Positions 1,061 to 34,713 of a stretch of 64,000 nt of DNA are shown here, one piece after another. The translations under genes and the position numbers were made by a program. Numbering within the stretch: position 1 is the first letter of the stretch; the number at the start of each line of letters is the position of its first letter. The stretch is taken from positions 1,798,001-1,862,000 of the forward strand of contig JALUTQ010000001.1 in assembly GCA_032718865.1 (NCBI GenBank), read 5' to 3'. The stretch is from Tilletia caries. Lineage: Eukaryota; Basidiomycota; Exobasidiomycetes; Tilletiales; Tilletiaceae. A model generated the notes under the pieces. That model was not told where the DNA came from and did not search any database. It saw nothing but the letters and a program-made list of their open reading frames with translations.

Positions 1061-1068
1061 CCACTACT
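1061..1068. repeat. 8-bp flank of left 507-bp element (matches left flank of right copy)
   Basis: CCACTACT here is the reverse complement of AGTAGTGG, which lies at 34194-34201 directly left of the second copy. In a simple insertion the same octamer should sit on both sides of one copy; here it sits on one side of each. Confidence 0.7.
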
Positions 1069-1575
1069 CGCACGCACATAATTCCTCGAATCTCGGCGAT
1101 TCGGCGATCGATATTTAGGCCAATCCCTGGTACACGTGACCCCACTTCCAGCTCGGCGGGGGGGCAAAAGCCCCCCCGGAACCCCCCCAACCAAAAGGAC
1201 AGTCTTGTCCGTCTCCATTGCTGTCATGTCTAATCCTGTCCGCTACGCGCTAACTCTAACCCGAAAAAAAAATGGTGTCCAGCATCTAACTTAGCAACCA
1301 AGTTGGAAAAAAGGGGAAAGAAAGAAAAAGGAATGTCCTGACACAGACTCTAACCGCCGACCTGCAGAATCGTCTTCCACATCACTAACCGCCATGCTAT
1401 GAGGGAAAGTTGATGCAGTTTCTGATTTGCGATTAAATATAAACAACCCCAACGCGAGCGGGCTAAAGATAGTATCAAATCGCGCTAACGCGCGCCCCGA
1501 TCGCGCTTAATCGCCGAACCTCCGGTTCGGGGCGGCTTGTCGCCGCCTTGTCGCTTCGAGGAAATATGGCCTTCC
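1069..1575 (-). mobile_element. 507-bp dispersed element, copy 1 (inverted relative to copy 2)
   Basis: This stretch is the reverse complement of 34202-34705, with only scattered differences across about 505 bp; similarity stops abruptly at both ends. It has no coding capacity. It contains several hairpins: a G7/C7 stem with a small loop near 1158-1182, a CCGAACC/GGTTCGG palindrome near 1515, and GGCGGC/GCCGCC near 1532. The ends are only weakly inverted (both contain a TTCCTCGAA core about 12 bp in). Read against copy 2 it looks like a non-autonomous DNA element that makes 8-bp target duplications. The family is unknown. Confidence 0.75.
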
Positions 1576-1583
1576 GTCAACAC
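1576..1583. repeat. 8-bp flank of left 507-bp element (matches right flank of right copy)
   Basis: GTCAACAC is the reverse complement of GTGTTGAC, found at 34706-34713 on the outer side of copy 2. With the octamer at 1061-1068 this shows that the flanks of the two copies are exchanged. Confidence 0.7.
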
Positions 1584-1960
1584 CAACACCGCCGCTGTCC
1601 GCTTCCTTCTCACGATCATCGTCCCCGAGCTCATCGCTGCTGTCCCCGCTGTCCTCGCTGCCACCGCCGTCACCGCCGGGACAAGGGAAAGTGCTTGTCG
1701 TGAAGGAAGAAGCTGTGACGGAGAATCGGTTGCGTCTTGCCGGGAAGCTGGGCGAGGTTCTGACTTGCCAACTCGACGTGGCCACTCTCACACGACCGTG
1801 GACCGAAGGACACCTAATCACATCTTTCTAATATCTTTCATTCCCCCCGCCGCAACTGGAAGCTTCCTGTGAGTCATATGCGACGGCGCCTCTCCTTTTT
1901 GCTGCCCCCCCCCATCTGCGCTGACGCCTCACTACTTCAGCAGATAAAGGGACGTCAATA

Positions 1961-4900
1961 ATGCAGCAGCATTCAACACACCGGCTCCCCTTCGCCGATA
2001 TCTTGGCGCACTCGCACGACGACCCCGACCCGTCTTCGTCGGCGGTGCCACTCGCGCGCAAGGCTGGAGAAGACGATCAGCAGAACGGAAGAGGTCTTCT
2101 GCTCGAATTCGTTGCGAAAACCAGCATGTACTGCCCTCCCCGCCAATCCCCGCTGCCGCTCTCCAGCAAGACGACACCCGAATGCCGTCACCCAGCTCGG
2201 GCGCTCCCGCGCGCACGACGCTCTCGACTGGCATTTTCGCTGCTTCTCTCCGTTGGAGCAATCTTCGGACTTGTATGCGGCACCCTACCGGTCGGTGCCA
2301 TACTCGCTCCGGGCGATGACCCTAATCCTGTGATCGGCACGGCGGAAGCCATCGCCTCAGCCCTACCAACACTTCCGGTCGCCATACCATCTGGGGACGC
2401 TGTGCAAACGGATACCGGTCCGTCCGCGCACGACGCGCAGGAGGCGTCGGGCCAAGTTCTAGAGCCCGTCAAGGTCGCTTTGCCTCCGCGTGTTGCAAAT
2501 CCGCCACTGTCAAGAACGACGATCCCCATCGAGGTACAAGGAACTACATTACTGTCATCTTTCTCGTCCTATTCCCAGTCTCTCGTCGCAAAAGCTTCAG
2601 ATCCTCCTCAGGCCGTTTTCCAAGCATCAGCGGCCTCATCGCCGTCCGCAAGTCACTCCCCTCCCGTCGACGTCACGATCGCAGCATCTTCCTCACACGC
2701 CTCGGAATCGACTCCAACTGCTACATCAGCAGGCTCCATTGCTACGACACAGCAAACAGCAGCGACACCAGATATACCCCTCCCACCAGTCCCAACTGCC
2801 GAAAATGTAACCCCGTCACCGTCAGCAGGAGCAGCGGGAACACAAAGCGCGACTGTACCCTCTTCGGAGCCGTCTCTTGCGAGCACGAGCCCGGAAGTCA
2901 CTGCAACAACTGAGCATATCACTGACCCTACATCTGCTGTGCCCCCGCCTTCCACGACAAATGATGTGCCGGTAGTGACTGAGCCAGTCAGCCCTGAGAC
3001 CGCTTCATCTACTCCTGCTCTTCCAAATTCTCGGCCGGCAGTCGGCAATCCAGGACCTCTGCTCGCCCAGCTCAAGCACCGATGGAACTTCGCCTCCATG
3101 GACTGTGCAGCCGTCGTGCACCGCACCAACCCGGGCGCCAAGTTCGCGTCTTCCATCCTGAGCGAGAAGAAGGATCGATACATGCTCTCACCCTGTCCAG
3201 CCGATGGGAAGGGCGGCGGACAGTTCGTCATCGTCGAGCTGTGCGACGATATCATGATCGACACCGTCGTCCTTGGGAACTACGAGTTCTTCTCCCGGCA
3301 GTTCAAGCGGTTCAGGCTGAGGGCTGCCGCCAAGCTCCATGCGCGGGAAGAGGACTGGTTCGACTTTGGCACCTTCCGGGCCAGAAATTCCCGTGGACTT
3401 CAAGTCTTCAATGTCGAACCGAGGGACAACGAGGTGGAAGCTCTGGCTGGAGCCGAGGCTGGTGTGATCCCGGGCTACGATGGCGAAGATGGCAGTGGCG
3501 ACCAGCCTCTACCTCCCCCACCATCGAGCAAGAAAGATGCACGATTCTTCCGCTACGTGCGCATCGACTTCCTCGAGCACTATGGATCAGAGTTTTACTG
3601 TCCCGTCAGCGTCTTGCGTATCTACGGACTCACAGCGCTGGACGAGTTTTATCAAGACCAGGAGGAAGGCGGTGACGGCGGTGCAGCGGCGGCCGTTGCG
3701 GCCGTGGCCAATCCCATTGTGGCGAATGTGGTAGAGTTGGCGGACCAGCTCGACTTTGCTTATCAGTATGCTGCGAACGGATGGGGATACATGCCCTATG
3801 AAAGCAAAGGCCCGGACGAATCTCGACTCATTGGGGACGGTACAAAGCAGGCTGAGGGACATGTCGCTGGATCGGGTACTCAGGGGCGTCCTGCGCTGGG
3901 TGCTTTTGACTCCCATTGGGAGAACATGCTCGATGCTGCCGTCGCCGCCGTGAAGTCTTCGTCCTCCGCTTTCAATTCGAACACAGCTACGTTTGCGGAC
4001 ACAAGCGGACAATGGAAGAAGGGACCTGCCTCCTCCTCGCAGGCGGCAGCAGCTGCAGCTGCAGCTTCGGAGGCGGCGGTACGTAGCACCGAGGGGGTGG
4101 TGGAGACATACCGGATCGACGTTGATGCCGGTCAGCCGCATGTACATGTCAACATACCAGGTGCAGGCTCGGCGCTCGGTGCGGACCCTATCGTTCTCGC
4201 CAGAGATAGGTTGACCTGCTCACCTGAAGATGCGCCGACGTGTGGTACATCGGAGACACCATCTTCCTCTCCTGTTCCGGGTTCTTCAGCATCGAAGGTT
4301 GCAAGTCCGGCTGCGAGCGAAATGCCTCAGCCGGGGAGCTCGATCCAAGCGGGGGTACCTTCTGCAACGAGTACGCAGCAAACAACTCGGCACCACACTC
4401 CGTCGTCATCTGCTCAAAGTATGGCTGGGCCGGCTCAGGGTAACACGGAGGCACAGCACGTGGTTCCTGTCAGCGTAAGCTCGGAGGCAGCTCAGAGCAG
4501 TCATTCAAATGCTTCTGCTGCGGCGAACGCGACACGTTCGACCACCGTTCAAGCACCAGCAGCCGGCGCGAAGAGCACTGAGGACAGAGATACGACCGAC
4601 ACAGCTAATGCTTCAGGCCCTCCTGCGGGGCAGCAGCCGGTGCCGGCTTCGTCACCGGTGGCGTCTGGGAAGTCTACGAATGCAAGTGCTGGAACGGGTA
4701 CAGCTATCCCTTCAAACACCACCGCGACCCGCCCTGTTGCCTCGAATGCATCGGTGACGGCAGGCGGGGCGTCTGGCGAGAGCCCTCGTGCACCCGTGCC
4801 TCCGCCACCCTCTCCTTCCCAGGGCAGTGGAGGCGGGGCAGGTTCTGAATCGATCTATCGGGCCATCAACAAACGACTGGCAGCGTTAGAGTACAACTCG

Positions 4901-6336
4901 ACGTTGAATCTGGCTTTCATCGAGCATAGTCAGCGACTTCTTCGAGACAGCTTTATGCGGATGGCTGATCGGCATCAGACTCGGATCGACGATATGGTCC
5001 GGGCACTGAATGCGAGTAATTGGAGGCAGTTTGACATGCTGAGGCGACGGACCCAGGTTGATTTGCAGAGGGCGCTGTTTGAGGCTGATATTCGGAGGCA
5101 GCAGGCGGATTCGGAGCGGTCGGCCATGATGGCGCAGATTCATCTGTTGACGGAAGAGGTGAGTAGCCTTTTCATCTGCGTTGTGCCCCCTTGTTGAAAG
5201 TAGATGTTAGATACTGACGTTAGAGATTTCCCTTGCAGGTTCTGATGCAGAAGAAGATCAGCCTGGCTCAGTTGTTCCTAATTCTAGGACTGTTCGTCTT
5301 TGTGGCGTTGACCCGCGGCATGCGTGCTCCACAATTCATCCAAACGGGTTTTGGGAACAAAGTCGGGATGAGCAGTCGGCCTTCGACACCAGTCGCTATC
5401 AGTGCGGCCGGCAGCCCTAACCTCGACGCTCCCAGCACGGGGCCCGTCTCGATATTCCCAACACCCGCGTTCATCCGCCAGCGACTGAATCGTTCCCGCC
5501 GAGTCTCGGCTCCGGCTCCCAGGGCGTCGTCTGCTGCGGCTGGGAATGCTTCGAATCCAGCTCAGCACAACAATCAGAACGGCTATCACCCCGGGCTCGC
5601 ACACCAACCTACCGACCGCAGTCGACTGTCGATCGTCGTTCCTGCCCTTTCGCATCCTTCGAACGTGTATCGGTTGAACAGCGGTGCTAGCAGTCCGAAT
5701 GGCTCCATACTGGAACTCAACGAGCTACTGCCCCATCAACATCACCACCCGCAGCCGATCCGTGGGGAACACTGGCGCGAGCGAATCCGCTCGAACGGGA
5801 CGGGATCCATCGTTTCCTTCCTCGATGAGGAGTTCGATGAGGAAGACATGGAAGAAGAGGAAGGGCTGAGCGATACGCGTCGACGGTCGACGTCCTCGGT
5901 TGCCTTCCGTCCGCGGCGGCGATCGACCTCCTCGACGACAACCAGGAGCGTGAGGTCGGCTTCGATCCGGTCTGGCTCGGATGGGAAGAGCATGACGGGA
6001 AGTGTCCGGAGTGGGAATGGTCGCGGAGGCCCCACGGCCTCCTCCCCATCACCACCGCCGCCGATACAGAAGGACGCAGTCGTTATGGTCTCCGTTTCTG
6101 ACGAGTCTGACATGACGGCGGTGATTCAGCACAGAGCGGACGGCGAGATGATCCCTGCTGAGCAGGCGGCCAATGGGAGTGCCAGTGTCGAGGTCGGCAA
6201 CCGTGATGGCTCGTCCGACACCGGCACGAAGCTGAAGAGGAGGCAAAGCGCAGCGGGCCCCTCCCCGGAGAAGAACAAGGCCGGGAAACGTGCTGGTGGC
6301 TTCTCCTTCACCTTTTCCTCTCCTGCTTCGAAATGA
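1961..6336 (+). CDS. SLP1-type SUN-domain membrane protein
   Basis: Two exons, 1961-5158 and 5239-6336 (intron GTGAGT...TTGCAG), about 1,431 residues. The SUN-like domain spans residues about 373-557: it starts near HRWNFASMDCAAVVHRTNPG, has LSPCPADGKGGGQFVIVELC, and ends near FYCPVSVLRIYGLT, the typical 'mid-SUN' pattern of yeast Slp1, plant SUN3-5 and animal OPT/SUCO. A hydrophobic stretch at about 90-112 fits a signal anchor. A second membrane segment (ISLAQLFLILGLFVFVALT) starts exon 2 after a basic and coiled region. Long Ser/Thr/Pro/Ala-rich linkers flank the domain, and the C-terminal tail is disordered and basic. Slp1 works with Emp65 in the ER membrane to protect soluble folding intermediates; that role here is by homology only. 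The start at 1961 is the first in-frame ATG; an ATG at 2129 is an alternative. Confidence 0.88.
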
Positions 6337-6747
6337 TTGCTCCATTTCATCTGCATCCATATACTCACATCGTTCTCCCTTACCCCTCTTGCATAATGTA
6401 CTGCATCAGACACCCTTCACGATTCGGTTGCAATGTCACGCTCATACGATATCAAACCTGAGACAAGCCAGAGAGAGAGAGAGAGCGCAGCGTGGTGGTG
6501 TTGGGATCAAGCTGTGTGTGGCCAGACCGCCTGGCTGACCTCCCCGTACATACCCGTATGGACTGAGCAAGCGTACGTATCCGCGGACGACAATCACCAC
6601 CTACTCACTCCGACCATCGCACCACGGCCTGCACATAATCCCACTCGTGCTGCTTCTGCTTACTGCTGCGTCTGCGCTGAAGAATCGTAACCTCCATCCT
6701 CCTATACGCAAGTACCACACTCAACCTCGCCCCATACCTTGCGCGCC

Positions 6748-8641
6748 ATGAGCATGTTCCGCTCCCTCGGCGCCGTCGCCCGCATCCTCTCCGGCGTCCT
6801 CGTCCTCGGGGTAGCCTCGACCGCATGTCTCCTATGGCGCTACCAGGGTCTCCTCGTCTACCCGGCCAGCTTCCCCAGCGGCTCCCGCACCGTCGTCGAC
6901 ACGCCCGAAAGCTTCGGCATGCCGTACGAGGAGGTTACGCTTACCACCCCGGACGGCGAGCAGGTCCGGTGTTTTGTGATTTTGCAGCGGACTCCGTCGG
7001 ACAAGGAGCGCGCGGCGGGGCTGAGTGGCGTCGGCGATGATACTGCGCGCAGACGGCCGACGATTGTCTTTTTCCATGCGAATGCTGGCAATGTTGTGAG
7101 TACATGCGGCATTATTGGGTGGGGAGTGGCGAAGCGGACCTGTGGAATGCTGAACTGCTTGCGTTTGCACTTGTGATGAAACCCAGGGCCATCGCCTACC
7201 TATCGCCGCCGTCTTCTACCGCCGCTTCGGCGCCAACGTCGTCATGCTTTCCTACCGCGGCTACGGTCTTTCGACAGGTACACCTTCCGAGCGCGGCATT
7301 CGGATCGATGCGCAGACCCTCATGGACTGGATTCACGGCCATCCTGTGCTGCGCTCAACTCATCTGGTGGTGTACGGTCAGAGCTTGGGAGGTGCGGTTG
7401 CGGTAGATATAGCTAGTCGGCCAAGTAATAAGGTGAGCTTCTGTATGGGAACTTGTTCGAGTGTCTCGTGCGCGTTGGATCTGAAGGCGGTATTCACACT
7501 GTTTCCGCCTACCCTCTCTTGCAGATCGCTGCTGTCGTCCTTGAGAACACGTTCGTATTTCCGAACGAGCTCCGCCCTAACGTACTTTGCTAATTTCCAC
7601 CTTCACGTTCAACAGCTTCCTTTCCATCCCCGAGCTCATCCCTCACGTCCTCCCACCAGCGAGACTTTTCACATTCCTTTGTCGTACGTATCTTGACTAT
7701 TTCGAGCTGGAAGTTTCGTCATTTACCTATTGACTGACCATCACTCCCTTCCCATCTTCATCTCTTTCTGCATGCTCTTTGCAGGTGAAATCTGGCCTAC
7801 AGGGGCTTTGATTCGCACGCTTCGAATGCCTGTGCTCTTCTTGTCCGGTCGCCAAGATCAGCTGGTACCACCTTCCCATATGGATATCCTGTACGAGCGA
7901 TGCCCAAGCAAGAACAAGGTCTTCAAGGCGTTCGGTGACGGGTCACATAGTAAGTTGGCTCGATTACTTTGTTTCCTTGAAGGCGCGGTTCATACTCATC
8001 GCCCACTACTCTGCCGCTTGAAAGATGACACATGTGTTAAGGTCAGTCTCACGGCTACGAGAGCTCCGTGCATCTCTTTCGACCTCACGTCTGACGCTTA
8101 TTGTCCTCTTTTACAGCCCGGCTATTTCGAAGAGATCTCGAACTTCCTCCTTCGTTACATCGTACCTCTACCACCCCGCCCGTCCTCTCCCACCCTTCCA
8201 TTATCTCCACTCGACGCACCTGACTCGTCACATTCCGAACTCAGAAGACGAAACCAACAACAACAACAGCAGCGCGAACGCGAGCCATCCTCAACGGGTT
8301 CTGTCGTCGCTTCTTCCTCGGCATCGATCATGTCCGGTGCGACAAGTCCAAGTCTGATCGATGCAGCCGAGATCTCACCTGCCAGTCCCCCTCATGGTGC
8401 AGCAGCAGCAGCAGCAGGAGACGAGTCGGATGGAGAGGGAACGGGTAGTGACTGGGTCGAGATGAGCATGACGGATGCTGTACCGCCTGAATCAGCCAAG
8501 GGAAGAGAGCCCGGGACGGCTGCGAGTGCGGGTGAAGTCAAGGCGGGAGCGGGCGGCTTGGCGCCGAAAGACACGGTGAAGAAGATGTTGGAGGAGGAGG
8601 CGGAGCGAGCGAAGGGCAAGACGACGGGGGGCAAACTCTGA
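6748..8641 (+). CDS. bem46: BEM46-like alpha/beta hydrolase (ABHD13 family)
   Basis: Seven exons: 6748-7095, 7187-7432, 7525-7550, 7616-7683, 7785-7949, 8025-8041, 8117-8641; about 464 residues. An N-terminal membrane segment (residues about 10-32) precedes the hydrolase fold. Family motifs are all present across the splice joins: HANAGNVGHRLPIA (oxyanion region), YGQSLGG (nucleophile Ser), LSGRQDQLVP (acid Asp) and GSHNDTCVKPGYF (catalytic His). BEM46 proteins sit in the ER or plasma membrane and affect polarity and germination in fungi; the substrate is not known. The third donor is GTTCGT, unusual but needed to give ENTFLSIPELIPHV. The C-terminal 130 residues are low-complexity (Gln runs, Ala runs, acidic stretch) and not part of the fold. 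Confidence 0.9.
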
Positions 8642-9638
8642 GGAATGAAGAAAACGCAATCGATGGCCAAAACCCACGTACCGATTTCACGAATCACGAC
8701 TGCTTTCGACTTTCTATTCGCCCCCCTCGCGTTCATCTTCAACCTCCTCTGGTCGACGTCTGTTGTACGGAATTCCCCACTCGCCGGTGTATCTCAGCAG
8801 TCTCCCTTTCTCGCAAGTACCCGGGACCCGGTCACGCCACGCCACGCACCGCACACGCCACACACCCAGAGTCGCCCGTATGCCCTTCAGCACAGCAAGC
8901 TTTCACGCGCGCTCTTGATACCTGATCTTCGCTTTCTCCCTCTTCCCCCCAACCCTGTTGATCTATATTTTCTTGCCCTTCTCCTTCTTTTTTCCAGCGT
9001 CATGGCCCCCAACCAACCTCTGTAATGCACAGCCCTCTTCCTCCCTTGTAACGAGAACAATCACGACAAGTTGCCCCGTCTGTCCCTTCCATCATCAGAC
9101 GGTGCAGAAGAGAGAAGTCTGGCACGGCACGGCACGGCCTTGTTTCGTTACAGCGTAAAGACCTGGGTTGGATTTGGGGGGGGGCGACTACATGGAGACA
9201 GGGCAAGAGTAAGATACGAGGAAAGACCTGGGGGAACCCGGGAGAACAGATATAGAGCGATTTGGTGAAAGATAGGCGGAGAAGCAAAAAAGAAAGGGGT
9301 GAAACAGCTGGGGGGCACGAAGGGAGTGGATGTTCTTTTCGGAGCTTCGTTTGCGTAAAAGGTTTGAAGGAGTCTGCGAGGTTGGGGTGGGAGGGGGGGG
9401 TTCGTAGTTGGTTGCAGCATGAAGCCGAGCCCGGGTTGACCGACCGAGGGGAATGGGCCCTTCCTCGCACGACGGTGCCCGTTGATCCTGCCGCTGAAAT
9501 CGGCATGACGTAGGAAGTAAAGTCCATGCTCGTGGAACTGGCTGGGCGTCCTCAATTTCCGGTTGTGAAAGTAAGAGCAGAAAGAAATCTCTAGAGGAGA
9601 GGGTCCAACCTGCGGGGCGCAATGTCGTCCTTTTTTTT
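8642..9638. other. Intergenic between convergent genes
   Basis: About 1 kb between the 3' ends of the BEM46-like gene and the WLCGC-tail gene. It is pyrimidine-rich on the left and purine-rich on the right. The open frames here have no recognisable domain. Confidence 0.5.
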
Positions 9639-11930
9639 TCATCCCATAGGATTCGTCTTGCCATGTTGCTATCGGACCGAGGGCGAGAGCGAGTGAGAAA
9701 GTAAAAGTATGTGAGTTTTCGTCAGATTCTCGAAGAGGCCAAAAAGTGTAAGAGAAGGAAATGGTACGAGAAGCGAACGAACCTGTTCATCCTCATCCAT
9801 CGCATGCCGCCCACATCCACAAAGCCACTCGGTCCACCACATCTTCCGTCCGTTCCTCAACTCCTCCTCCTCCTCCCGCCTCTGCACTTGGGCCGCTTGA
9901 CGACGACGACGACGCTGCGCAGCGACCCACTCCGCTTCGGCTCCTCGCTCCCCATCGTTCTCGTCGTCGTCGTCATCGTCTTCAAGGCCGACCTCGTTAA
10001 AGCGCGAGTCGTGCGTCGAGCGGCGTTTCGGGGCAGAATGAGTTCCCACACCCGCTCTCCGATCAAGTTCGTCACTCCCACCCTCGTCATCTTCGAAGTC
10101 CTCCTCATCTTCCTCCCCCTCGGCAATCGTCCGATGACTCCTCCGCGAGCCCAGCCTCCTCGACGACCGTGGCTGCTTCATAGCCGGTTGTTGTTGGCCA
10201 TACGAACCCCCACCGGCGTTCATGCTATACGCACCTCCGTCCCCCGCTTTCCCGCCGCGCTTGTTAGCCATCCTCGCTGCCTCCTCCTCCTCAGCCGCTT
10301 CCGCATCCGCGTCCGTAGCCACAATAGAAGGGAACCCCCGATCAGCGTCGCGCCGCTGGCGCTCGAGCGTGGCAGGTGCTTCCCGCCCTACGGTCACGAT
10401 CGGCCTACTCGCCGACGGTTTCGGTTTCGCGTACGCGGGTAAGGTGGTGCTCGCGTATGACGAGGAGGCGGATCGGGAGAGACGTTTTTGTTGCTGATTT
10501 GGTGGTGACGATGATGAGGAATGGTCTGGGGTGATTCTCAGTTGGGGCGTTTGCTGTCGATTGGTCGGGTTCTCCACGTCGTGCTCGAGTGACATGGATA
10601 CGCTGGAGACGTCGCCCTCTGCGTTCAATTGTTCATCGGCGTCGTCTGCGAAAGGGTTCGGGTTCGCATTGTCGGCTTGATCAGACTCGTAGTCGAGCGC
10701 ACGACCTTTACCCTTCAGTCTGTTGATGGCGTCGCCGCTGCCGCCATTAGCACCCCTTTGCGCAGCCGTCGTGTTCTTGAGCGGCCTGGGCGTCCCGTTC
10801 GATGCAGGGTCGCCCTCGGAGACATGTTCCGACCCGTCGCTCTGGAAAAAGCCGGCCTGCTTGATGGTAGGCGTCGCATCCGGCGAGACGGGCTGGGCAG
10901 GATGGATGGCCACTGCAGCCGCGAGCGCGGCTTGGTTCGAGGAGACGGAGCGAGTGAGCGCGTCGGAGCTGGTGTAGGAGTCTAGACTGCTTACGCTCTC
11001 CCGGCCGTTCAGTTTGCGGAGCGGGCCAGGTGGGCCGTACCCGCTACTCCTGCGTGAGCCGGTTTGACCAGCGCGTCTGCCGAAGGATCCTGAGTGTGTG
11101 CTACTGCTTCCGCCTTCCTCATCAGCGAGCGTTTCCAAGGGAACTTGCTCGCTCGGAGAAATCGCATCTCCTCCCCTTCCACTACCACCACCACCACCAC
11201 CGCCGACGTTCGTACTGATCTGACTCAAGGGCCGGCCCTGAGGTGTGCCAGACAGACGGAGGGAGCTCAAGCGCCGAGCAAGAGCCGAGGCGGCCGGGGG
11301 CCCGAGTAAGGAGTTGGTCCGGGAGGCGCGCAGGGCTTTCCGACGCTGTTTTTCCTCGGCGGCCCATCGCTCGAGGTTTCGTTCGACCTCGCGAGCCTCG
11401 TCGTCTTCCTCGCTGATGGGCGGGTAGGAGGAGGAGGAGGGGAGTCGACCGCCTCGGGCGACTTGGCCAGTGCCTGTGCCGAGGCCTCCTTGATCGGCGC
11501 TGCCTCCGCCGGAGGTTTTGTTGGACGATAAGGAGGTCGGGGGCAGGATGGTGGTGCTTGGGGATGCTGTCCCTGTCGAAGAGGAAGAGGAGGAGAAGCT
11601 GCGTTGTTTCTGCTGTTGTGAGTAGGAGGTTGAGCTCATGGTGATTGTGTGATCGTGCTCCTGATCGTTGGGCAGATCGAGAGCTGGGTTGCTCATATAG
11701 GAAGCGTGATCGAGGGGCTGGCGTGGGACGAGGGCGTTGCCGTTGTTGTCTGCGAGGGTGGAAGTGCTGTTGGAGAGTGGGAGGTCGTGCTCGTTGTTGT
11801 ATGCGTCTGAGGTGGATGAGGAGGCGTCCGAGGCGGTCGATGCTTCTCTTGATGCGAACAAGGGCCGGGTGATGGCCGCTGAAGCCCCGGCTGCTGCGCT
11901 GCGACTGTCGACGGCGGCAGAGGATGCCAT
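9639..11930 (-). CDS. Low-complexity protein with conserved WLCGC...NP C-terminal tail
   Basis: Two exons, 11930-9783 and 9668-9639, about 725 residues. Most of the protein is disordered: Ser/Thr-rich, with Gly runs and blocks of Asp/Glu. The only conserved-looking part is the very C-terminus. There the long exon ends with RKMWWTEWLCGCGRHAMDEDEQ, and a 10-codon last exon adds a GKTNP-containing tail and a stop. From memory, many fungal proteins of unknown function end with a similar W-T-E-W-L-C-G-C ... Q-x-GRTNP block, and the small last exon restores that ending exactly. The ATG at 11930 is the first in the frame; the open frame upstream has no ATG. No function is known to me. Confidence 0.75.
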
Positions 11931-18172: not shown

Positions 18173-18216
18173 AACAGGAGGGACCAACGCAAGGTCTGTG
18201 GTGCACGGCTTTCGAC

Positions 18217-19936: not shown

Positions 19937-20015
19937 GAACCAAGAAAAACAAGAGAGGAAGGGAAAGCCTCGAGGGAAGAGCGAACATGCCGTACGATAC
20001 CGGCGCGAGGAAATA

Positions 20016-26024: not shown

Positions 26025-26367
26025 AGGAGTCCCTCCTCTCTCGGCTCCCTCCCCCCCCCCCTCCCCAAACACACAAAAAAGATCGCCACATGCTCTCTCT
26101 GACTCGCTCGGCGCTCCATTCTGTATCCAATGTCTCGTACCTCGTTGCCGTACCCAAAGTCCCAATGGGCATTTGAATCTCATCGCTTCGTGTGCAGATC
26201 GTGTGGTGACTAAGTAGTAATTTACCCCGCACGGACAGTCTTGAAGCTGCGTGACGCTTCGGCTCGAAGGTATCCTCATCACCACCATCACCTCATCTAT
26301 CCTCCTTGTCAAAGGCATACTTCTGACGCCAATACCTCGCACTGCAACAGCACCCGAACTCCAGATC

Positions 26368-29300
26368 ATGCCACCCATGAGCGTTGCTGACCACTCCCGT
26401 GATTCTGGTTCCGGGATGCCCGGGCAGAAACTGTGCCAGTGCAGGTCAAGATGTGGCACCACCGGCCGCTGGGTCGATCGGCAGACGTACGAGAATCACC
26501 TGCTCGACTTCGACGATGGGTGCTCGTCTGGGTCCGATGACGGTGGTGCTAGCGGAGGAATGGGGGAGCTTGTAGATGATTTCGGCCAGGTGAGTACTTC
26601 CTTGTCCCCGGTCTCTGCGGTACCGATGGCGTATTCACTCGCAATGCTCTCCACTTCACTGCAGGATCCAATGGACTACATCAATCAGGAGGAAGATATC
26701 GAGCTCGACATACGTCCTGATGCTGGCTTGCTGCCGGCAGAGGACGACCTCTTGGCTGGTGGGTTCTCTTTGGACATCGACGATGACGGCAGCGACTCGG
26801 GTACCGGACCAGACACATCGGACCCACAGCCGGAATGGTTGCGACTCTTTGAGATAATGCTCGTTTGGCTCAATGTGGAGCACAGCGTTCCCGACCGTAC
26901 GTGCGAGCTGCTCCTCGCCTACCTGCAATCCGTCTACTACACGATCTCGTCCGCATCGTCAAGCTCAGCGCGCCGCCCATTGCCAAGCGCTCGAATGGCG
27001 CGCATCAGGAAGTCTCTTGGTCTCGAAGGATACGGAATCACCTATGCCCTGTGTCCCGACCGATCATGCTTGACGCCTCATTTGCTGAAGGAAGTCATCG
27101 AGCGGCAAACGGGGTCATGCCGCCGTTGCGGACTAGCTCTCGTTCACGATCCTCAGCCGCAGGCGCCTCTCGTACTTTCTGTTCCTCTCAAGCCGCATCA
27201 AGTGAAGGTCCGGCTCCGATACGAGCCCATTACAAACTGGCTTCAGCAACTCCTACCCAGGCCCGACATACTCGCGCTGTGTAGACACCACAAACGAAGA
27301 CAGCATACCCCCGGGGTGTATCGAGATCTGTACGACGGTTCGAATTGGACTGCACACGAAGGAGACAGTCGATTCGACTTGGTTCTCAGTCTTTCGCTCA
27401 TGATTGATTGGATTCAGCCATTCTATCGACTTGGAACCGCGTCGTACAGCTGTGGCGTTGTATCGGTTCGCGTGGACGACCTACCGTTTCATATGCGGAA
27501 CGCATCAGCGTACACCCATGTCTGTTGCATTCTGCCAGGACCTCAGAAGCCCACAGCGGAAGGTTTACATGCAACGCTAGACATTGTAGTCGCGGAACTT
27601 CACCGTCTCTACGAGGATGGCCTACAGATCAGCGAGTTGGTCGACCCAGTCACAGGCCGGCCTGTATCCGTCCGCGTTCGTCTCGCTCGTCTTCTGGCGG
27701 ACACCGACGCTCGTACCTCTACCGCTGGATTTCCCAGCCATTCATCGAAGGGCCAATTCTGCCCTTGGTGCACCGTCGATCACGAGGATTGGGTCCGGCT
27801 TCTACTCCAAGGGCAAGAAGGGCAGGCCAGAAACCCAGCAGACCATCGTCGAAACTCTCTGCGCGCTCTTCCCAATGCAGTACCACGTCTGCGGCCAGCC
27901 GAGCTCGATTCGCTTCGGCGCGATCACGCCGCTTGTCTATCTGTGCTCTACAAGATACCCACACGGTCGAGTTTGGACCACGCGCCTGTGGACGTGATGC
28001 ACAACTTGGACCTGGGCCTGTGCAAGCATTTCTGGACCCAAACCTTGGTCGACGGAACGCTTCTGGATCAATCAGACTTGCGCGTTTGCAAAGAGGTTCT
28101 GCAAAGGACCACGTACCCTACAGGAGTCACAAGGATCAGTCCCGACCTCGGGCTGACCTCCGGCGGTACGCCAACAGCGGCTGGCTGGTCAGTGTTGTCT
28201 CAATACATCATGCCTGTCCTACTTGCTTCGTCGTGGTCCAGCCTCCTTCAAGCATCAGCACAGAAGACTTTCCAAAGCTTGAAGCCGACAATGGTCAAGA
28301 AAGGATTGGTCAATCCAGCCGCAGCTCCGGCTTCAGCGCCAATTCTTCAGGACAATGTACCCGGACCTAGCTCGAGGCCAGAAGCGACGAGAGCGACTCG
28401 CCCTCCCAAAAGAGGGCAAAAAAAAGGAGCCAGTGCCCAAATTCACAAAAACAGTCTCTCTTACCACCATCCTGGAGGCGTCTCTTGTTTTGGCATTGGC
28501 ATGTCGCCTAGCGCACGCCAGGGCGATAGGCGAAGTCCAATTGCAGCAGCTGCATAGGAGTTTGAAAACGTTTGTTACTCTCATAGCTTCCGAGATCGAT
28601 CACAGCTGGGTACCATATAACTTCCACATCGCCTTACATATAGCCGATCAGATTCGCCGCCATGGGCCAGCTTGGGCGTTTTGGAGTTATCCACAAGAAC
28701 GATCATACGGTCTGATGAAGAGAGTGAGTCGTACAGCCCTGCTTTTGAAAATTCACGCAGCTGGCCTGACACTACCTTCCGTTCTATGATCCGCCGTAGA
28801 TCAGGACCAACAAGCATCGAGGAGGGGAGCTGGAGCATACTATGCACACCCGAAGCGAGGATCGGCATCGGATTATGGCCCTCCTAGAAGCGATGCCAGT
28901 AACACCACTCTCGCGCATACTGCGAGACAGTATCAGGTCCGAGAAGGCAACAGGTCCCTCCTCCTCCACCCGTCCCATACGATCGGAAAGAGAAGGTCAA
29001 GACGGAGATACTGGAGACAACGCCGAAGACGACGTCGACGGCGGTGAATTAGACACTTCCGAAACTGTCGTATCTCTCAGCAACGCAGATATGCAACGCG
29101 TCTGTGCTCTGGCAAACAAGGATCGGAACGCGGGGCAGGCACGATTTGTCCCGTGTTTCGACTATAACGGCCGCATTCCGGAACTGGTTATCGACTCGAC
29201 CGCAACGTCCGTTGCTCGATTGTCGGTCGGCGAGTTCATACTGCGGCCAAGGAACCAGCGCCATGGAATCAGATCCGATCCATCCGCGTGCTTCGTCTCA

Positions 29301-29618
29301 ACACCAGGAGGTCCACGACTTGCCCGCTTCTGTTCGGTCGTACAGATCCCATATGTCGACTTACGCTTACAGGATCGGTTCAAAGACTACGCTGTGGTTG
29401 AGATCCTTGATGCTCTGGACTGGCAGGACGGACTCGGTCTCTCTTCGTCTACTTGGAAGGAACTCGGATACCTCGCCGCCAGATCCGCGTCTGCTATCCG
29501 GACCATCGTTGACATCGACGATGTTTTGGGACCAGCTATTGTTCTCCCAGGAACGCGCATCTTCGGCCTGCCAGACAGCATCATTGCAACAATGATTCAT
29601 CCTGCTGGCAGGAACTAA
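26368..29618 (+). CDS. Tnp2-family (Plavaka/CACTA-like) transposase
   Basis: The start ATG at 26368 gives MPPMSVADHSRDS, then a CxCxxxC motif (CQCRSRCGTTGRWVDRQTYENH), as in fungal Plavaka proteins. Introns are seen at 26590-26664 (in frame) and 28724-28799. The second joins ...SYPQERSYGLMKR to IRTNKHRGGELEHTM, the usual end of the Tnp2 core. Catalytic-core landmarks are LSLMIDWIQPF, SYSCGVVSVRVDDLPFHMR, DVMHNLDLGLCKHFW and NFHIALHIADQIRRHGP. Between about 28240 and 28450 the reading frame moves by one. This needs either another intron that I cannot place or a slip in the A8 run at 28419-28426, so the copy may be damaged. The last exon (28800-29618) is a less conserved C-terminal region. Confidence 0.75.
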
Positions 29619-29742
29619 GGCACCGTTCGTTTCGGTACGTACTCTCTGGAAGGACTCACGCTCCGGTCGTGCTTACTCAGTTCTCATTCCTTACCTGTCA
29701 ACGGCCCGTCCCTCAGTAAGGCTCAGCGACTCAATTTTCAAA

Positions 29743-29945
29743 GAGCGCGAGGGAATGTCGTTGTGCTCAGCAGCTCCAAGGAGCGCGAGGGGGTGTCGAT
29801 GCGCTCAGCAGCTCACGAGGAGCGCGAGAAAATATCGTTGTGCTCAGCAGCTCCAAAGAGCGCGAGGGGGTGTCGTTGCGCTCAGCAGCTCACGAGGAGC
29901 GCGAGGGGGGGTCGGTGCGCTCAGCAGCTCACGAGAGCGCGAGGA
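29743..29945. repeat. 39-bp tandem repeat array (about 5 copies)
   Basis: Five adjacent units of about 39 bp, each AGCGCGAG..GTCG.TGCGCTCAGCAGCTC plus a variable tail of CCAAGG or CACGAGG, followed by a partial sixth. The two tail types alternate (units 1 and 3 CCAA, units 2, 4 and 5 CACGA), so the array may have grown as 78-bp pairs. It lies 125 bp after the transposase stop. Confidence 0.85.
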
Positions 29946-30257
29946 AGAGGGACATCCGGGGGCGAAGAGGAAAGGGAGGACGCGGAAAGTGTCAAGGGTA
30001 GCCTCTTTATATAGGTGTTGTCTGGTATGTATGTGTAGCCAGAGTGCTACAAGTGCCGGTCGTTTTTCATTTCACCCAACATGTTACGCACGGTCGTTCT
30101 CATATTGGGTCATTTCATTTCGCGTTTACAGTCCACAGTAGTCTTACATCCACCGCTGACTCATCCACATCCTTCATCACCAACCCTCCGTCCAGATCCG
30201 CAGGTAACATATCCATAACCCTCATCTCTAACCGTCGTACCTCCAGTTCTCCACAGC

Positions 30258-31946
30258 TTAGCTGAACAGCTCATCCTCCTCTTCGACATTATCTTCATCC
30301 TCCTCCTCCTCATCTTCGTCCCCTGATCCACCCCATCCAGTCTCGGCATCCAACAGTCGTTGAGTCTCCCGAGTTGCCCCTTCGTCGGATGAATCCTCGT
30401 CACGGCGCAAAGGACCATCCCGGCGGCCACCAGTCCCGTTCTCGCCATGATTTGCGCCGCCAGATTCAGTTCCCTCGTCGTCTTCATCACGATCATAGAT
30501 CGTCCAGTCTGGATCCTGTCCCCAATCCTTGGCACCCGTCGTCACGGAATACGGCCCTCGAAATGGTCCTGCGTTGTCCGAGACATGCTCGCAGCTATCC
30601 TCGTTCGCGTCGGCCCAAGAGCGGGCAACCATCCACCGACGAACGCTGGAAGGAAGCGTAAATCCTTGAGGTAAGGGCCGAAGACGGTTGGGCGGTAGGA
30701 TGGGCTTCGATGGCTGACGACTTCGCTTCTTGTCCAGTTCTTCGAGCTTGGAGATGAGACAGGACGAACGCCATTCGATCCCAACGCGCCTGCGAACGTG
30801 TCGGCCGGGCCGCCCCCCATCGCTCAAGCCATCGCCTTCAGCATCGGATGAATCGTTTGATGGACGGACTGGAGCCTTGCCGTTTTCGATGACCTCCCAC
30901 TCGTCCTCTTCGTCACTCATGGCGCAAGGCTGTACGGTAAACTCAACATCCGCGCGGACTGCGCCCAGTCGCACGCGGCGCGCTTCGTCGGCCTGATTTG
31001 TTTTGGCGACCTTAGCCCCATCAGAAAGGAAAAAGTACCGGTGCAGACGCAACGCCTTGGCTCTCGAGCCCGCCTTACGTTTTCGGCGCGCAGAGTGACA
31101 GGACCTCTTCAGGGCGACCTTCTTCTTCTGCCGGCCTGCAGAAGATAGCGACCGAGTATACTCGATAACCCAGCCGTTGAATGTCGTGGCGCACTTGGCG
31201 ATCAAGTCTTCAAGCGACATGTCTACCGGGACACCGCATCGTTGGCGGTGAGCAAGCATGTATCGGAAGGTCGAGCGGAGCTGCCTTTGGTTCACAGGAT
31301 CGGTATACGATCGAGCATAGTCCAAGCGAATCTGATCCCCACTGGTGAGTTCGTCTTCGGCGATCCCATCTTGTTCTGCTCCCGTTGTGCTGATACTTTG
31401 GGATGGAGGATGCTTGGGCCAGGCACCACGTCTGGGGTACGGCAGCTTGACGATACTTCGCCCGCCTCGGACACCGCCGTACCCGATGTGCACAAGTCGG
31501 CGGAAGTGACGGTAAATCTTGCAGTCATGGACCTTCGCGACCGGAGGCGCAGACGGACCGCCGCTTGCGTTTCGAGAGAGCTGGTTCAGCTCCTTACGCT
31601 GGCGTACGGATGGAGCGAACTCAGAATCCTGCGCCTCAGCGACTTCGGACCTCGCGGCGGACCTCGTGGATTCTTCAAGGATGGCGACACGCTCTTCAAG
31701 AGCTCGATAATCGGCCGCACTGGCGGTTCGGCCAGAGTGCTGACTCTGTTGGCTGTTCGGGGGAGCCCCAGAACGAGAGCTTGAAGACGTGCGCTCATGA
31801 GCGGTTGGCTGGGTGGCCGGGAAAGCGCTGGAGCGCGAAGGCGTGCGCTCATGGGCTGTCGGTTGGCTGTTCGAGAGAGATCGAGAGTGCGATACCATGC
31901 GACCAGGGCCAGTCGGCGACGTACGCAAAGGACCGCGGTCAATCAT
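30258..31946 (-). CDS. Unrecognised 562-residue protein inside the Tnp2-like element
   Basis: Single open frame on the strand opposite the transposase, starting at ATG 31946 (MIDRGPLRTSPTGPGRM). The N-terminal 90 residues contain near-repeats of QPTAHERT. A short coiled segment (YRALEERVAILEEST) follows, then an ordered middle with CKIYRHFRRLVHIGYGG, PYPRRGAWP and RSYTDPVNQRQLRSTFRYMLAHRQRCGVP. A basic Lys/Arg block near AGRQKKKVALKRSCHSARRKRKAGSRAK could bind nucleic acid. The end is strongly acidic (GDEDEEEEDEDNVEEEDELFS). I recognise no family. Its place inside the element suggests a transposon accessory protein. Confidence 0.55.
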   Translation of the reverse strand: MIDRGPLRTSPTGPGRMVSHSRSLSNSQPTAHERTPSRSSAFPATQPTAHERTSSSSRSGAPPNSQQSQHSGRTASAADYRALEERVAILEESTRSAARSEVAEAQDSEFAPSVRQRKELNQLSRNASGGPSAPPVAKVHDCKIYRHFRRLVHIGYGGVRGGRSIVKLPYPRRGAWPKHPPSQSISTTGAEQDGIAEDELTSGDQIRLDYARSYTDPVNQRQLRSTFRYMLAHRQRCGVPVDMSLEDLIAKCATTFNGWVIEYTRSLSSAGRQKKKVALKRSCHSARRKRKAGSRAKALRLHRYFFLSDGAKVAKTNQADEARRVRLGAVRADVEFTVQPCAMSDEEDEWEVIENGKAPVRPSNDSSDAEGDGLSDGGRPGRHVRRRVGIEWRSSCLISKLEELDKKRSRQPSKPILPPNRLRPLPQGFTLPSSVRRWMVARSWADANEDSCEHVSDNAGPFRGPYSVTTGAKDWGQDPDWTIYDRDEDDEGTESGGANHGENGTGGRRDGPLRRDEDSSDEGATRETQRLLDAETGWGGSGDEDEEEEDEDNVEEEDELFS

Positions 31947-32129
31947 TGAGGAGGCAGCGGATAAGGACAAAGTAAGGCAGAGCGGTGAGACGGGCGGGGA
32001 CGATACACAGTACTGCGGTATCTCACAGTAACTATGCAATGAAGGGGAAAAGCTGTTGCTAACACTACTGACTACTTGATGCTTATATATCCTGATCTTT
32101 CCTTTGCAGACCACAGCCCGACTCACAAC

Positions 32130-33835
32130 CTTCTCCTAACCCATCTGGCTGACCACTCTTCTACCCTTCTTCCGTGACGCTGATGCCATTAAGTTTTTCT
32201 AGCAGGAGCTGATGCAACAAGCATCTTACCGGTCTTCGATCGCGAAGGATTCAAGGATCACAACAAGGACCAATCTCTTTGTTTTCCAGACGACAGGACT
32301 CCGGAAGAAGAGACACGAGGCACGAGGCCGGAGGCGTGAGCTATGACGAGGCTACGACAATGCGAGGGACGACCGCAAGACAATCTTGGACTCCATGACT
32401 CGATGACACGCTCAATGAACGGTACATGCTCCGATGCTACCCAGTACCCAGACATCAGTCGGCCAAACCCAGTGCACACTGCACACAAGGCGAGCAGCGA
32501 GCAGTCCACAAGCGGCAGGCCTCAGCCCTCAAAGGAATGCATGCACAATTGACAATCACATTGATGACGTTGACGAAAGCTTCAAGGATGCAGATGACTT
32601 GCTCATCGAGCTCGATAGAGTCAAGGTTGCTGCAAGGAGTCTGGGAAAGGAAAGGAGCGAAGGGAACCGCGAAAGCAAGAAGACAAAAATTTCGGGCTTA
32701 TAGGAATTCTAGGTCGAATTTGCGTAGAAAACTGATGCGAATTCTATAGTTTCCATTCCGGAAAACTGATAGCGGATTCACGGAGTTTTCACCTCCAGGA
32801 AACGGTAACCCTCAACGCAGTGAACCCACAGTCCCACCTCGTCTGCTCCGGTTCGGAATGAAGGAGAGTGAACATATCTTGAGAATTGAAGCTGGAACGG
32901 AATAAAGTGCAAGGGGAGAACTTGAATTCAATGACTAGTGAGTGCGAGGGAAGGGAAAGAGTAGCTCACCTTTTGTCCTGAGCGAAGAGATGGAGAGGAT
33001 GAGAGACTCACCAAGAGAGGAGTGAAGAAAGAATGATCGTTGCTGGGCGTGCATACTGCGCTGCGGGACGGATGAGGGCGTCAACCATTGGACATTGGAG
33101 CGGGATTCGAGGAACGCTGATAGATGATGATGTAAACTTCAGCAGGTGATAAGCTAGAAGGTCAGTAACAATACAGCAGTCGGTGTTGAGGGGGTCCAAA
33201 GCATACGCGAAGAACGGGAGAGGAGTCAGCTGTGAGACACCACTAATAGGCGCAGCCGCGAGGATTTGATTTCAGTAACTCGGAAGAAGGGAGATGCTCA
33301 CCGTGCGTGAGACTTGAGAGTAGCCAGTAAGGCAAAAGAAGGTGAATTGTGAAAGCGAGAGACTCCGAAGGCTCGGAGAGCGAGACAAAGGAGCGGGAAG
33401 AAGTGAGCAAAGCACAAGAGGAGTCAGCGAGGCAACAAGGGTGTGATCTGTCAGCGAGGGAACTCAACGCTCAACACGCTGCTCAGGGATCAGAGAGGCA
33501 AGAGTAAAGAGCGAGCGTCTGGAAGTGAGCGGAGTGAGACAGAGGAAGGCGTTTCAGTAAGTAAGGACAGAGAAGGGGCGGGAACAATGGAAGGCATATA
33601 CCGATGTCCTTGTAACGTTGGTCGATGTGGGTGGAGAGGCGAGACGTCCGTTGGTCGATGGTGCTGGTATATCGGCCCTGAAAGTCAGGGTTGAGTTCGG
33701 AGGCGATGGGGGAGGAGTGCTTGCGGGACGGGTCAAGGTCCGAGGAGATGAGTCAAGGGATGAGAAGGAAAGCGATGCTCGCCCAAAGAAGCTGGAGTCA
33801 AGGCAGTGTGAATAAATGCTGTTTATCAGTGACAG
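32130..33835. other. Non-coding, purine-rich right part
   Basis: No recognisable gene. 32690-32830 holds the right end of the Tnp2-like element. 33240-33580 is strongly AG-rich with many GAGAG and AGCGAG words. Confidence 0.4.
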
Positions 33836-33839
33836 TTAT

Positions 33840-33955
33840 GGTACAGTCAGCACTTGTGCGCGTTCACGCTCCGAGATGCGGCCATACACGCCACTCACCA
33901 TGTTCGTTTGTTCACTGCTGCGGTTGCGTTGCCGTCGTCAAGGACGAGAGCGAGA
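33840..33955 (-). pseudogene. Degenerate copy of the RTF2 promoter and start codon
   Basis: Around 33883-33925 the text CCATACACGCCACTCACCAT and TTCACTGCTGCGGTTG nearly repeats 21502-21547 (CCATACATGCCACTCACCAT, TTCACCGCTGCGGTTG), which is the ATG-only exon, donor and 5' leader of RTF2. Similarity continues on both sides (GTCGTCAAGGACG). Exon 2 of RTF2 is not present. A GAT microsatellite (about 33957-33980) follows at once. Confidence 0.75.
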
Positions 33956-34193
33956 GATGATGATGATGATGATGATGATTGATTTTCAAGTGCGAGGTGA
34001 AAGAATTACAACGGAGACTTTCGATGCTCAACAAAGACGAGCACTGGCGCACCGAGTCAGTACAAGACCAACTCCATTCTACCCATCAGAGGTTCCCGAG
34101 AGATGCGCAGGCGCGCGTTGTCCTAACTATGCCTGCTGGAGGACAGGAGGCTGGTGGTTGCAGTTGAAGGCATTAGATACGAGAGCGAGAGAG

Positions 34194-34201
34194 AGTAGTG
34201 G
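34194..34201. repeat. 8-bp flank of right 507-bp element
   Basis: AGTAGTGG; its match lies beyond the far end of copy 1 (reverse complement at 1061-1068), not on the other side of this copy. Confidence 0.7.
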
Positions 34202-34705
34202 GGAAGGCCTTATTTCCTCGAAGCGACAAGGCGGCGACAAGCCGCCCCGAACCGGAGGTTCGGCGATTAAGCGCGATCGGGGCGCGCGTTAGCGCGATTT
34301 GATACTATCTTTAGCCCGCTCGCGTTGGGGTTGTTTATATTTAATCGCAAATCAGAAACTGCATCAACTTTCCCTCATAGCATGGCGGTTAGTGATATGG
34401 AAGACGATTCTGCAGGTCGGCGGTTAGAGTCCGTGTCTGGACATTCCTTTTTCTTTTTTTCCCCTTTTTTCCAACTTGGTTGCTAAGTTAGATGCTGGAC
34501 ACCATTTTTTTTTCGGGTTAGAGTTAGCGCGTAGCGGACAGGATTAGACATGACAGCAATGGAGACGGACAAGACTGTCCTTTTGGTTGGGGGTTCCGGG
34601 GGGGCAAAGCCCCCCCGCTGAGCTGGAAGTGGGGTCACGTGTACCAGGGATTGGCCTAAATATCGATCGCCGAATCGCCGAGATTCGAGGAATTATGTGC
34701 GTGCG
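34202..34705 (+). mobile_element. 507-bp dispersed element, copy 2
   Basis: Starts GGAAGGCC and ends GTGCGTGCG. It is the inverted counterpart of 1069-1575. One visible difference is the loop of the G7/C7 hairpin: GCAAAGC here, GCAAAAGC in the same plus-strand reading of copy 1, which means the stem is partly inverted between the copies. No coding capacity. Confidence 0.75.
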
Positions 34706-34713
34706 GTGTTGAC
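34706..34713. repeat. 8-bp flank of right 507-bp element
   Basis: GTGTTGAC, matching the inner flank of copy 1 (GTCAACAC at 1576-1583 in reverse complement). Confidence 0.7.

What the first reader, a model, noticed from the sequence alone, without database searches (positions are those of the whole stretch)
1061..34713. Swapped 8-bp flanks at two inverted 507-bp elements: footprint of a 32.6-kb inversion
Seen in sequence: element copies at 1069-1575 (minus) and 34202-34705 (plus). In element orientation, copy 1 is flanked by GTGTTGAC (left) and AGTAGTGG (right); copy 2 by AGTAGTGG (left) and GTGTTGAC (right). Each octamer appears once beside each copy. Two independent insertions with 8-bp target duplications would each carry the same octamer on both sides. 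Exchange of flanks is what homologous recombination between two inverted copies produces, flipping everything between 1576 and 34201 (SUN gene through the Tnp2 element). Inference: DPH3 originally neighboured the far end of this block, and the 34976 gene neighboured the SUN gene side.
Basis: partly seen in the sequence, partly recalled or inferred. Interest (0 to 1): 0.88.

Follow-up and report, generated by a model that had tools for sequence, protein, structure and literature searches.

The report
Transposon-flanked 33-kb inversion in smut fungus
In a bunt-fungus genome a 33-kb block appears to have been flipped between two mirror-image copies of one jumping gene, and further such pairs in the same genome suggest that the jumping gene itself made the flips.

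Summary
The elements (1070-1575 minus, 34202-34704 plus) are short non-autonomous copies of a Mutator-like (MULE) family. Of 40 family copies whose flanks I read, 31 have matching 9-bp duplications, 2 irregular ones, 3 none, and 4 form two swapped pairs: this one, and two inverted 5.5-kb copies 7.8 kb apart on contig 27. In another MULE family, two inverted copies on contig 5 show the one exchange that can still be read there.

The flip has independent support. A paralogous stretch upstream of RTF2 (21498-21684) aligns straight across the predicted pre-inversion junction (DPH3 upstream joined to the far end of the block), but not across the current one.

In all three pairs the copies are each other's closest relatives among those compared, with no clear chimerism. 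I favour the one-step route at about 0.6 against 0.31. Mis-assembly is unlikely but not excluded; no reads or sister genomes could be inspected.

The parts
1070..1575 (-). Copy 1 of the non-autonomous MULE-type element (506 bp)
34202..34704 (+). Copy 2 of the element (503 bp), closest relative of copy 1 among the copies aligned
1061..1069 (.). 9-bp duplication CCACTACTC (reverse complement of GAGTAGTGG), outer side of copy 1
1576..1584 (.). 9-bp duplication GTCAACACC (reverse complement of GGTGTTGAC), inner side of copy 1
34193..34201 (.). 9-bp duplication GAGTAGTGG, inner side of copy 2
34705..34713 (.). 9-bp duplication GGTGTTGAC, outer side of copy 2
1576..34201 (.). Inverted block, 32,626 bp including the two inner 9-bp duplications
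982..1069 (+). DPH3-side half of the pre-inversion junction; aligns to the RTF2 upstream paralog
33878..33943 (-). Far-end half of the pre-inversion junction; aligns to the RTF2 upstream paralog
21498..21684 (-). Paralogous stretch upstream of RTF2 that keeps both halves contiguous (pre-inversion order)
33944..34192 (.). Dispersed retroposon-like repeat (body about 33958-34178) with 14-bp direct duplications ACGAGAGCGAGAGA; its outer duplicate ends next to the element's 9-bp duplication
597..884 (-). DPH3 gene (CSL zinc finger), left outer neighbour
1961..5197 (+). SUN-domain gene (main exon), left inner neighbour
34976..36686 (+). Gene with relatives only in Tilletia plus one unnamed metagenome protein in the search made; right outer neighbour
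20156..21160 (-). RTF2 (main exon) whose upstream region is the paralog of the old junction

Best explanation
The 32.6-kb block is a real inversion bounded by two inverted sister copies of a short MULE-type element. It was most likely made in one step by aberrant transposition of a single resident element. After replication, the 5' end of the element on one sister chromatid and the 3' end on the other act as a hybrid element and insert about 33 kb away on the same molecule, in the flipping orientation. The product is A-t-[E]-n-(block reversed)-t-[E reversed]-n-C. It has two inverted copies where there was one, the original 9-bp duplication t split between them, and the new 9-bp duplication n split between them. 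Shown: the footprint, the inverted orientation, the 9-bp habit of the family, the sister relationship, the pre-inversion order at one junction, a second full case and a third one-sided case. Inferred: which ends were used, that sister chromatids were involved, and which 9-mer was the original site.
For: Exchanged 9-bp duplications at an inverted pair. Of 40 family copies with both flanks read, 31 have matched 9-bp duplications. A second pair on contig 27, 5.5-kb copies inverted and 7,755 bp apart, has the same exchange, CGCACTGCA and AACCTGGAG. A third pair, in another MULE family, lies at C5:98390-100594 (minus) and about C5:100891-104682 (plus): the first copy's own flanks do not match (AGGCGCAAG / GGAATGAAT), but its inner 9-mer is the reverse complement of the second copy's outer 9-mer ATTCATTCC. 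The second copy has lost its 5' end, so the other exchange cannot be read. This pair was examined because it is a close inverted pair, not because of its flanks. In all three pairs the copies are nearest kin among the copies compared. Window pair: 7 shared-derived sites, support 99/97. Contig 27: 13 sites group them against 1 in conflict, 7 mismatches in 5.5 kb against 28-38 to the two other close copies, support 100/99. Contig 5: 2 mismatches in about 2.2 kb, against 99.5% and 99.0-99.4% identity to the two nearest other copies. Pre-inversion order at the DPH3 side: the joined flanks score 105 against the RTF2 upstream paralog, versus 59 for the left flank alone and for the current join; permissive scheme 78.5 against a maximum of 50 for 906 random joins kept of 1000.
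Against: Local transposition followed by ordinary recombination would also give sister copies, and gene conversion could make two older copies look like sisters. The window pair was found because it was swapped. One conflicting site exists in the contig-27 pair. Hybrid element insertion was met here only in reading on other elements (P, Ac/Ds); no MULE case turned up in the listings. An inverted, non-sister pair of the other MULE family about 54 kb apart on contig 4 has at least one member with its own matched duplication, so not every inverted pair is swapped. No sister genome, reads or empty site could be inspected. The window copies differ at 11 of 503 aligned sites.
Confidence: 0.6

Rival explanations
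1. Two elements inserted separately in opposite orientation about 33 kb apart, and homologous recombination between them (NAHR) later flipped the block, exchanging one duplication of each.
For: It gives exactly the same footprint (passages of PMC2775673). The copies are 97.6% identical over about 500 bp, which could serve for recombination. The pre-inversion order is supported. The 5.5-kb and 2.2-kb pairs offer even longer homology.
Against: Neither fully read pair looks chimeric: contig 27 has 13 grouping sites and 1 conflicting, the window pair shares 7 derived sites with 1 ambiguous. In PMC2775673 chimeric copies were taken as proof of recombination. Each event would first have needed a local inverted sister insertion, yet in the typed list of 44 family elements no unswapped or direct same-family pair lies within 50 kb, apart from the contig-10 tandem trio.
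Confidence: 0.31
2. Assembly artefact: the genome has two ordinary insertions with matched duplications and the assembler placed the block between them the wrong way round.
For: A wrongly oriented block would show exactly these swapped duplications, and the paralog evidence for the old order fits an unflipped genome as well. The contig-27 copies are 5.5 kb and 99.9% identical, a harder repeat to span.
Against: The assembly has 40 contigs for 38.1 Mb, and there is no N in the window or in the 293,683 bases of loci fetched, which points to long reads. A 503-bp repeat is easily spanned by long reads. Independent errors at three sister pairs would be needed.
Confidence: 0.06
3. No inversion at all: flanks similar by chance, or a composite transposon that carried the whole 33 kb in one insertion.
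For: A pair of inverted copies around a block resembles a composite transposon.
Against: A composite insertion would carry one duplication on both outer sides; here the outer 9-mers differ (CCACTACTC and GGTGTTGAC) and each recurs at the other copy's inner side. The block holds ordinary host genes (SUN, SAC1, RTF2). Chance is about 4^-18.
Confidence: 0.01

Closest known systems
Galileo-made inversion 2z3 of Drosophila buzzatii (PMC2775673, abstract and passages seen)
   Same: Inversion bounded by two inverted copies of one DNA transposon with exchanged target duplications (7 bp there, 9 bp here).
   Different: There the two copies are chimeric, which the authors take as proof of ectopic recombination. 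Here the fully read pairs are sister copies without clear chimerism. Superfamily P there, MULE here.
Hybrid element insertion / sister-chromatid alternative transposition (P element; maize Ac/Ds; passages of PMC2775673 and PMC8225341 seen)
   Same: Predicts an inversion flanked by two inverted, identical copies with split old and new duplications, as observed.
   Different: Described there for P and Ac/Ds elements. The event itself was not observed here, only its footprint.
Intramolecular replicative transposition of bacterial Tn3/IS6-type elements (recalled, no call)
   Same: Also makes an inversion between two inverted copies with the target duplication split between them.
   Different: Eukaryotic MULEs are thought to cut and paste (recalled); no test here separates this chemistry from sister-chromatid use.
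MULE-associated rearrangements in plants (citrus deletions, PMC4334395, start of abstract and passages seen)
   Same: MULE activity linked to chromosome rearrangement.
   Different: Deletions after irradiation and MULE activation; a passage says the ARR deletion does not match homologous recombination, alternative transposition or cut-and-paste. Not described in those passages as swapped-duplication inversions.

Membership tests
MULE (Mutator-like) DNA transposon superfamily | Target duplications of 9 bp | tested here: met
   31 of 40 copies with both flanks read have 9-bp duplications with at most 1 mismatch
MULE (Mutator-like) DNA transposon superfamily | Terminal inverted repeats shared with longer relatives | tested here: met
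   TIR pattern search: 68 ends, 1 hit for the reversed-pattern control; seven pairs enclose 4.7-5.6 kb. The window type has unlike outermost bases at its two ends
MULE (Mutator-like) DNA transposon superfamily | Long relatives encode a MULE transposase | tested here: met
   One of the seven long copies tested (contig 27, L054): ZSWIM1-3 RNaseH-like 34.1 bits (cut-off 27.2); Pfam MULE 21.5 bits, below its cut-off of 27.6; weak SWIM finger, below cut-off. Not tested for the long copy with window-type ends (C22)
MITE / non-autonomous derivative | Short, multicopy, ends like the long element, too short for a transposase | tested here: met
   Most short copies are 492-511 bp, with some of 375-476 bp; ends shared with 4.7-5.6-kb copies
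Inversion by ectopic recombination (Galileo type) | Inverted copies with exchanged target duplications | tested here: met
   one-sided in the contig-5 pair
Inversion by ectopic recombination (Galileo type) | The two copies are chimeras of two parental copies | tested here: not met
   Contig-27 pair 13 grouping to 1 conflicting site, gap columns left out; window pair 7 shared-derived sites, 1 ambiguous; parental copies are unknown, so this is not final
Inversion by hybrid element insertion | The two copies descend from one element (identical at birth) | tested here: met
   Sister clades 99/97 and 100/99; contig-5 pair 2 mismatches in about 2.2 kb. Cannot exclude prior local transposition
Inversion by hybrid element insertion | Relatives carry a single element at one of the two sites | not testable with these tools
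   The genome search states that this genome has no relatives here

The most novel reading that the evidence does not exclude
In this bunt fungus MULE-type transposons of more than one family repeatedly invert neighbouring host DNA in one step while adding a second, mirror-image copy of themselves (hybrid element insertion or a replicative equivalent), rather than by recombination between older copies. The three solo elements with unmatched flanks would be the deletion products of the same reaction.
Probability: 0.55. Interest if true: 0.68.

Novelty: new member of a known kind. Interest (0 to 1): 0.55.

Why it matters
Exchanged target duplications can be read as proof of recombination between two old copies. 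Three pairs in one genome, each made of sister copies, show that the footprint alone cannot tell the routes apart, and the genus offers a direct test: do relatives carry one element or two? If the one-step reading is right, active MULE families reshuffle gene order in a crop-disease fungus when they misfire, and the 9-bp flanks of their copies record the events in a single assembly. It also shows how a single genome can be polarised without an outgroup, by a paralog that spans the old junction.

Tried and rejected
Sister-genome synteny: no fungal relatives are held; the genome search states that this genome has no relatives here. I tried locus-tag numbers of Tilletia proteins as a proxy for gene order. 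The tags shown for SAC1, the right-outer gene and SUN came from different assemblies (A4X13/CF336; CF319/OC835/OC846; CF327/OC842/OC845/V8E36), so they could not be compared. Two T. horrida contigs of similar length (34,147 and 34,244 bp) are a hint only.

Open reading frames across the contig-27 junctions: no known gene is evidently restored by either arrangement. The longest junction-spanning frame is in a current-order join (285 aa), against 190 and 108 aa in the two ancestral joins, so this gives no support for the flip there.

Swapped partners for the three solo mismatched elements (C5:1620205, C34:844916, C22:206101): none among the other ends whose flanks were read (the ends were compared by eye). 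The cross-match of C23:39504 with C1:134248 (same 9-mer, reverse complement) was set aside because each has its own matched duplication.

The window's other MULE (43143-45392) was considered as source of the transposase; its TIRs look unrelated, so the 5-kb relatives are the better candidates. Seven of seven copies of that other family with both ends in the fetched loci have abutting flank duplications, one of them with a one-base ambiguity. Further TIR searches added no local same-family pair.

Rows left out. Of the 43 rows, 12 match only the inner part of the element (about 60-448) and were not put in the list of 44. Three of the 12 lie within 50 kb of listed elements (C23:32969, C34:814884, C36:1411567). 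Five of the 12 were checked (these three and two others): none has the family's TIRs, so I treat them as a different repeat; seven were not checked. In one search other same-contig neighbours of the second MULE family (C3:45 and 70 kb; C39:62 and 91 kb) belong to different identity classes and were not examined. The contig-4 pair about 54 kb apart is not a sister pair: 93.4% identity, while one member is 99.9% identical to a contig-36 copy. Copy counts are lower bounds (40 of 73 candidates scored, 70 of 166).

Full report
What is there. The window is G000:C1:1798001-1862000 of a 38.1-Mb, 40-contig genome. Protein names place it in the bunt fungi, near Tilletia laevis / T. controversa: the SAC1 frame matches T. 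laevis at 100% and T. indica at 94% (82% of the query covered), the right-outer gene matches T. controversa at 100%, and SUN matches T. laevis at 100%. Two copies of one element lie inverted at 1070-1575 and 34202-34704. Copy 1 carries GGTGTTGAC / GAGTAGTGG and copy 2 GAGTAGTGG / GGTGTTGAC in element orientation.

What the element is. The genome search lists 43 matching stretches to the element (40 of 73 candidates scored). A terminal-repeat pattern finds 68 ends, with 1 hit for the reversed-pattern control. Seven pairs of ends enclose 4.7-5.6 kb. The one tested (L054) encodes an RNase-H-like MULE/ZSWIM transposase segment: 34.1 bits against a cut-off of 27.2 for ZSWIM1-3, and 21.5 bits for Pfam MULE, below its own cut-off of 27.6. 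A 5.3-kb element with the window type of ends sits at C22:206101-211409; most of its interior was not read.

Duplication census. I read both flanks of 40 elements: 37, plus C22:206101 and C19:386421-403128 and C1:1359429-1365277. Of these, 31 have matching 9-mers with at most one mismatch. For C1:1359429 the match needs the element's end set one base earlier than the pattern hit; the C19 pair of ends is 16.7 kb apart and may be a nested element. Two have irregular repeats (C25:831503, a 16-bp repeat; C35:1016038, the 9-mer offset by 4 bases). Three have none (C5:1620205, C34:844916, C22:206101). Four are swapped. The three contig-10 copies counted among the 31 share one 9-mer and look like one insertion amplified in tandem. 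The four swapped ones are the window pair and a second pair of 5.5-kb copies, C27:1240411-1245929 (+) and C27:1253684-1259224 (-), with CGCACTGCA / AACCTGGAG exchanged.

A third pair in another MULE family. The copies are C5:98390-100594 (minus) and about C5:100891-104682 (plus), roughly 300 bp apart. They differ by 2 mismatches over about 2.2 kb, whereas the nearest other copies, L048 and L045, are 99.5% and 99.0-99.4% identical. Two relatives with the same ends, L048 and L049, have intact 9-bp duplications. The first copy's own flanks do not match (AGGCGCAAG and GGAATGAAT), but GGAATGAAT is the reverse complement of the 9-mer after the second copy's right end, ATTCATTCC. The second copy has lost its 5' end and carries two inserts of about 790 bp, so the other exchange cannot be read.

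Was the block really flipped? The swapped 9-mers say so. An independent line comes from the window itself. The stretch upstream of RTF2 (21498-21684) resembles both the DPH3 upstream region (982-1069) and the far end of the block (33878-33943), in the order and orientation of the unflipped state. Between these lies a dispersed repeat, 96-100% identical to 13 or more other genomic places, several of them partial, with 14-bp flanking duplications. With the repeat left out, the joined flanks align to the paralog through the junction in one local alignment, with one gap of about 30 bases further along. The score is 105, against 59 for the left flank alone, 78 for the far flank alone and 59 for the current join. 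In a permissive scheme the score is 78.5, against 40 and 43 for the halves and a maximum of 50 in 906 random joins (1000 drawn, those near the loci dropped). DPH3 (597-884, CSL zinc finger) and RTF2 were confirmed by Pfam. The other junction (SUN next to gene 34976) has no second copy in the genome at that search's sensitivity and remains inferred. For the contig-27 and contig-5 pairs no independent evidence of the old order was found (for contig 27; not sought for contig 5).

How it happened. Recombination between two inverted copies and hybrid element insertion of one element give the same arrangement. Delprat and colleagues state that the copies are identical under the second and chimeric under the first (passages of PMC2775673). 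Here the window copies share 7 derived sites absent from the five other subfamily members aligned and group at 99/97. The contig-27 copies share 13 sites against 1 in conflict, differ by 7 mismatches over 5.5 kb where they differ by 28-38 from the two other close copies, and group at 100/99. In the typed list of 44 family elements no other same-family pair lies within 50 kb except the contig-10 tandem trio. Under insertion followed by recombination one would expect direct pairs and unswapped inverted pairs as well. The window pair was found through its swap; the contig-27 and contig-5 pairs were found by position. Local transposition plus recombination, or gene conversion, could mimic the result. 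I put one-step insertion at 0.60, recombination at 0.31, misassembly at 0.06.

Against the reading. No reads, no sister genome and no empty site were available. A wrongly oriented block in the assembly would look identical; contig size and the absence of N make that unlikely. The window copies differ at 11 of 503 aligned sites, so the event there is not recent. Twelve inner-only matches were kept out of the census; five were checked and have other ends. An inverted non-sister pair about 54 kb apart on contig 4 includes a copy with its own matched duplication.

Novelty. TE-bounded inversions with exchanged target duplications are known (Galileo), as are hybrid element insertions (P, Ac/Ds). Rearrangements by non-standard transposition of impala in the fungus Fusarium are mentioned in a passage of PMC8225341. 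In the open-access library, the listings (titles and abstract beginnings) showed no MULE-bounded inversion with exchanged duplications in a fungus. The Verticillium, Yarrowia and Fusarium papers listed were not opened. A word search of one comparative paper on these Tilletia species found no occurrence of 'inversion' or 'rearrangement' (PMC9172201).

Noticed in passing
G000:C27:1240411-1259224 (L054, L055): Second swapped pair: two 5.5-kb MULE copies, inverted, 7.8 kb apart, 99.87% identical, with exchanged 9-bp duplications.
   Followed up: yes
G000:C5:98390-104682 (L039, L046): Third pair, in another MULE family: inverted copies about 300 bp apart, 2 mismatches in about 2.2 kb, one readable 9-bp exchange (ATTCATTCC); the second copy lacks its 5' end and carries two direct inserts of about 790 bp.
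   Followed up: partly
window 43143-45392: A different, intact-looking MULE with a 630-aa transposase frame, its own TIRs and matched 9-bp duplication CTCTTGCCC.
   Followed up: partly
window 33944-34192: Dispersed 220-230-bp repeat with a GAT-repeat end and 14-bp duplications, nearly identical at 13 or more places; looks like a recent 5'-truncated retroposon.
   Followed up: partly
window 1070-1575 versus 34202-34704: The loop of a G7/C7 hairpin inside the element reads TTTT in copy 1 and AAA in the other five copies aligned there, as if the loop itself had flipped.
   Followed up: no
G000:C10:21400-28400 (L066): Three copies of the element with identical flanks and the same duplication AATCAATGG: a tandem duplication of element plus flanks.
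   Followed up: partly
G000:C19:386421-403128: Element ends of the window type 16.7 kb apart with nearly matching 9-mers (CCATCACAA / CCATCAAAA): a very long or nested family member.
   Followed up: no
G000:C5:1620205, C34:844916, C22:206101: Three solo elements with unmatched flanks and no swapped partner found; possible deletion or translocation scars.
   Followed up: partly
window 29739-29946: Five tandem copies of a 38-39-bp unit downstream of the tnp2-type transposase frame.
   Followed up: no
G000:C1:134230-134750 (L068): Two element ends separated by only the 9-mer ACCCCCTGG, the same 9-mer (reverse complement) as at C23:39504.
   Followed up: no
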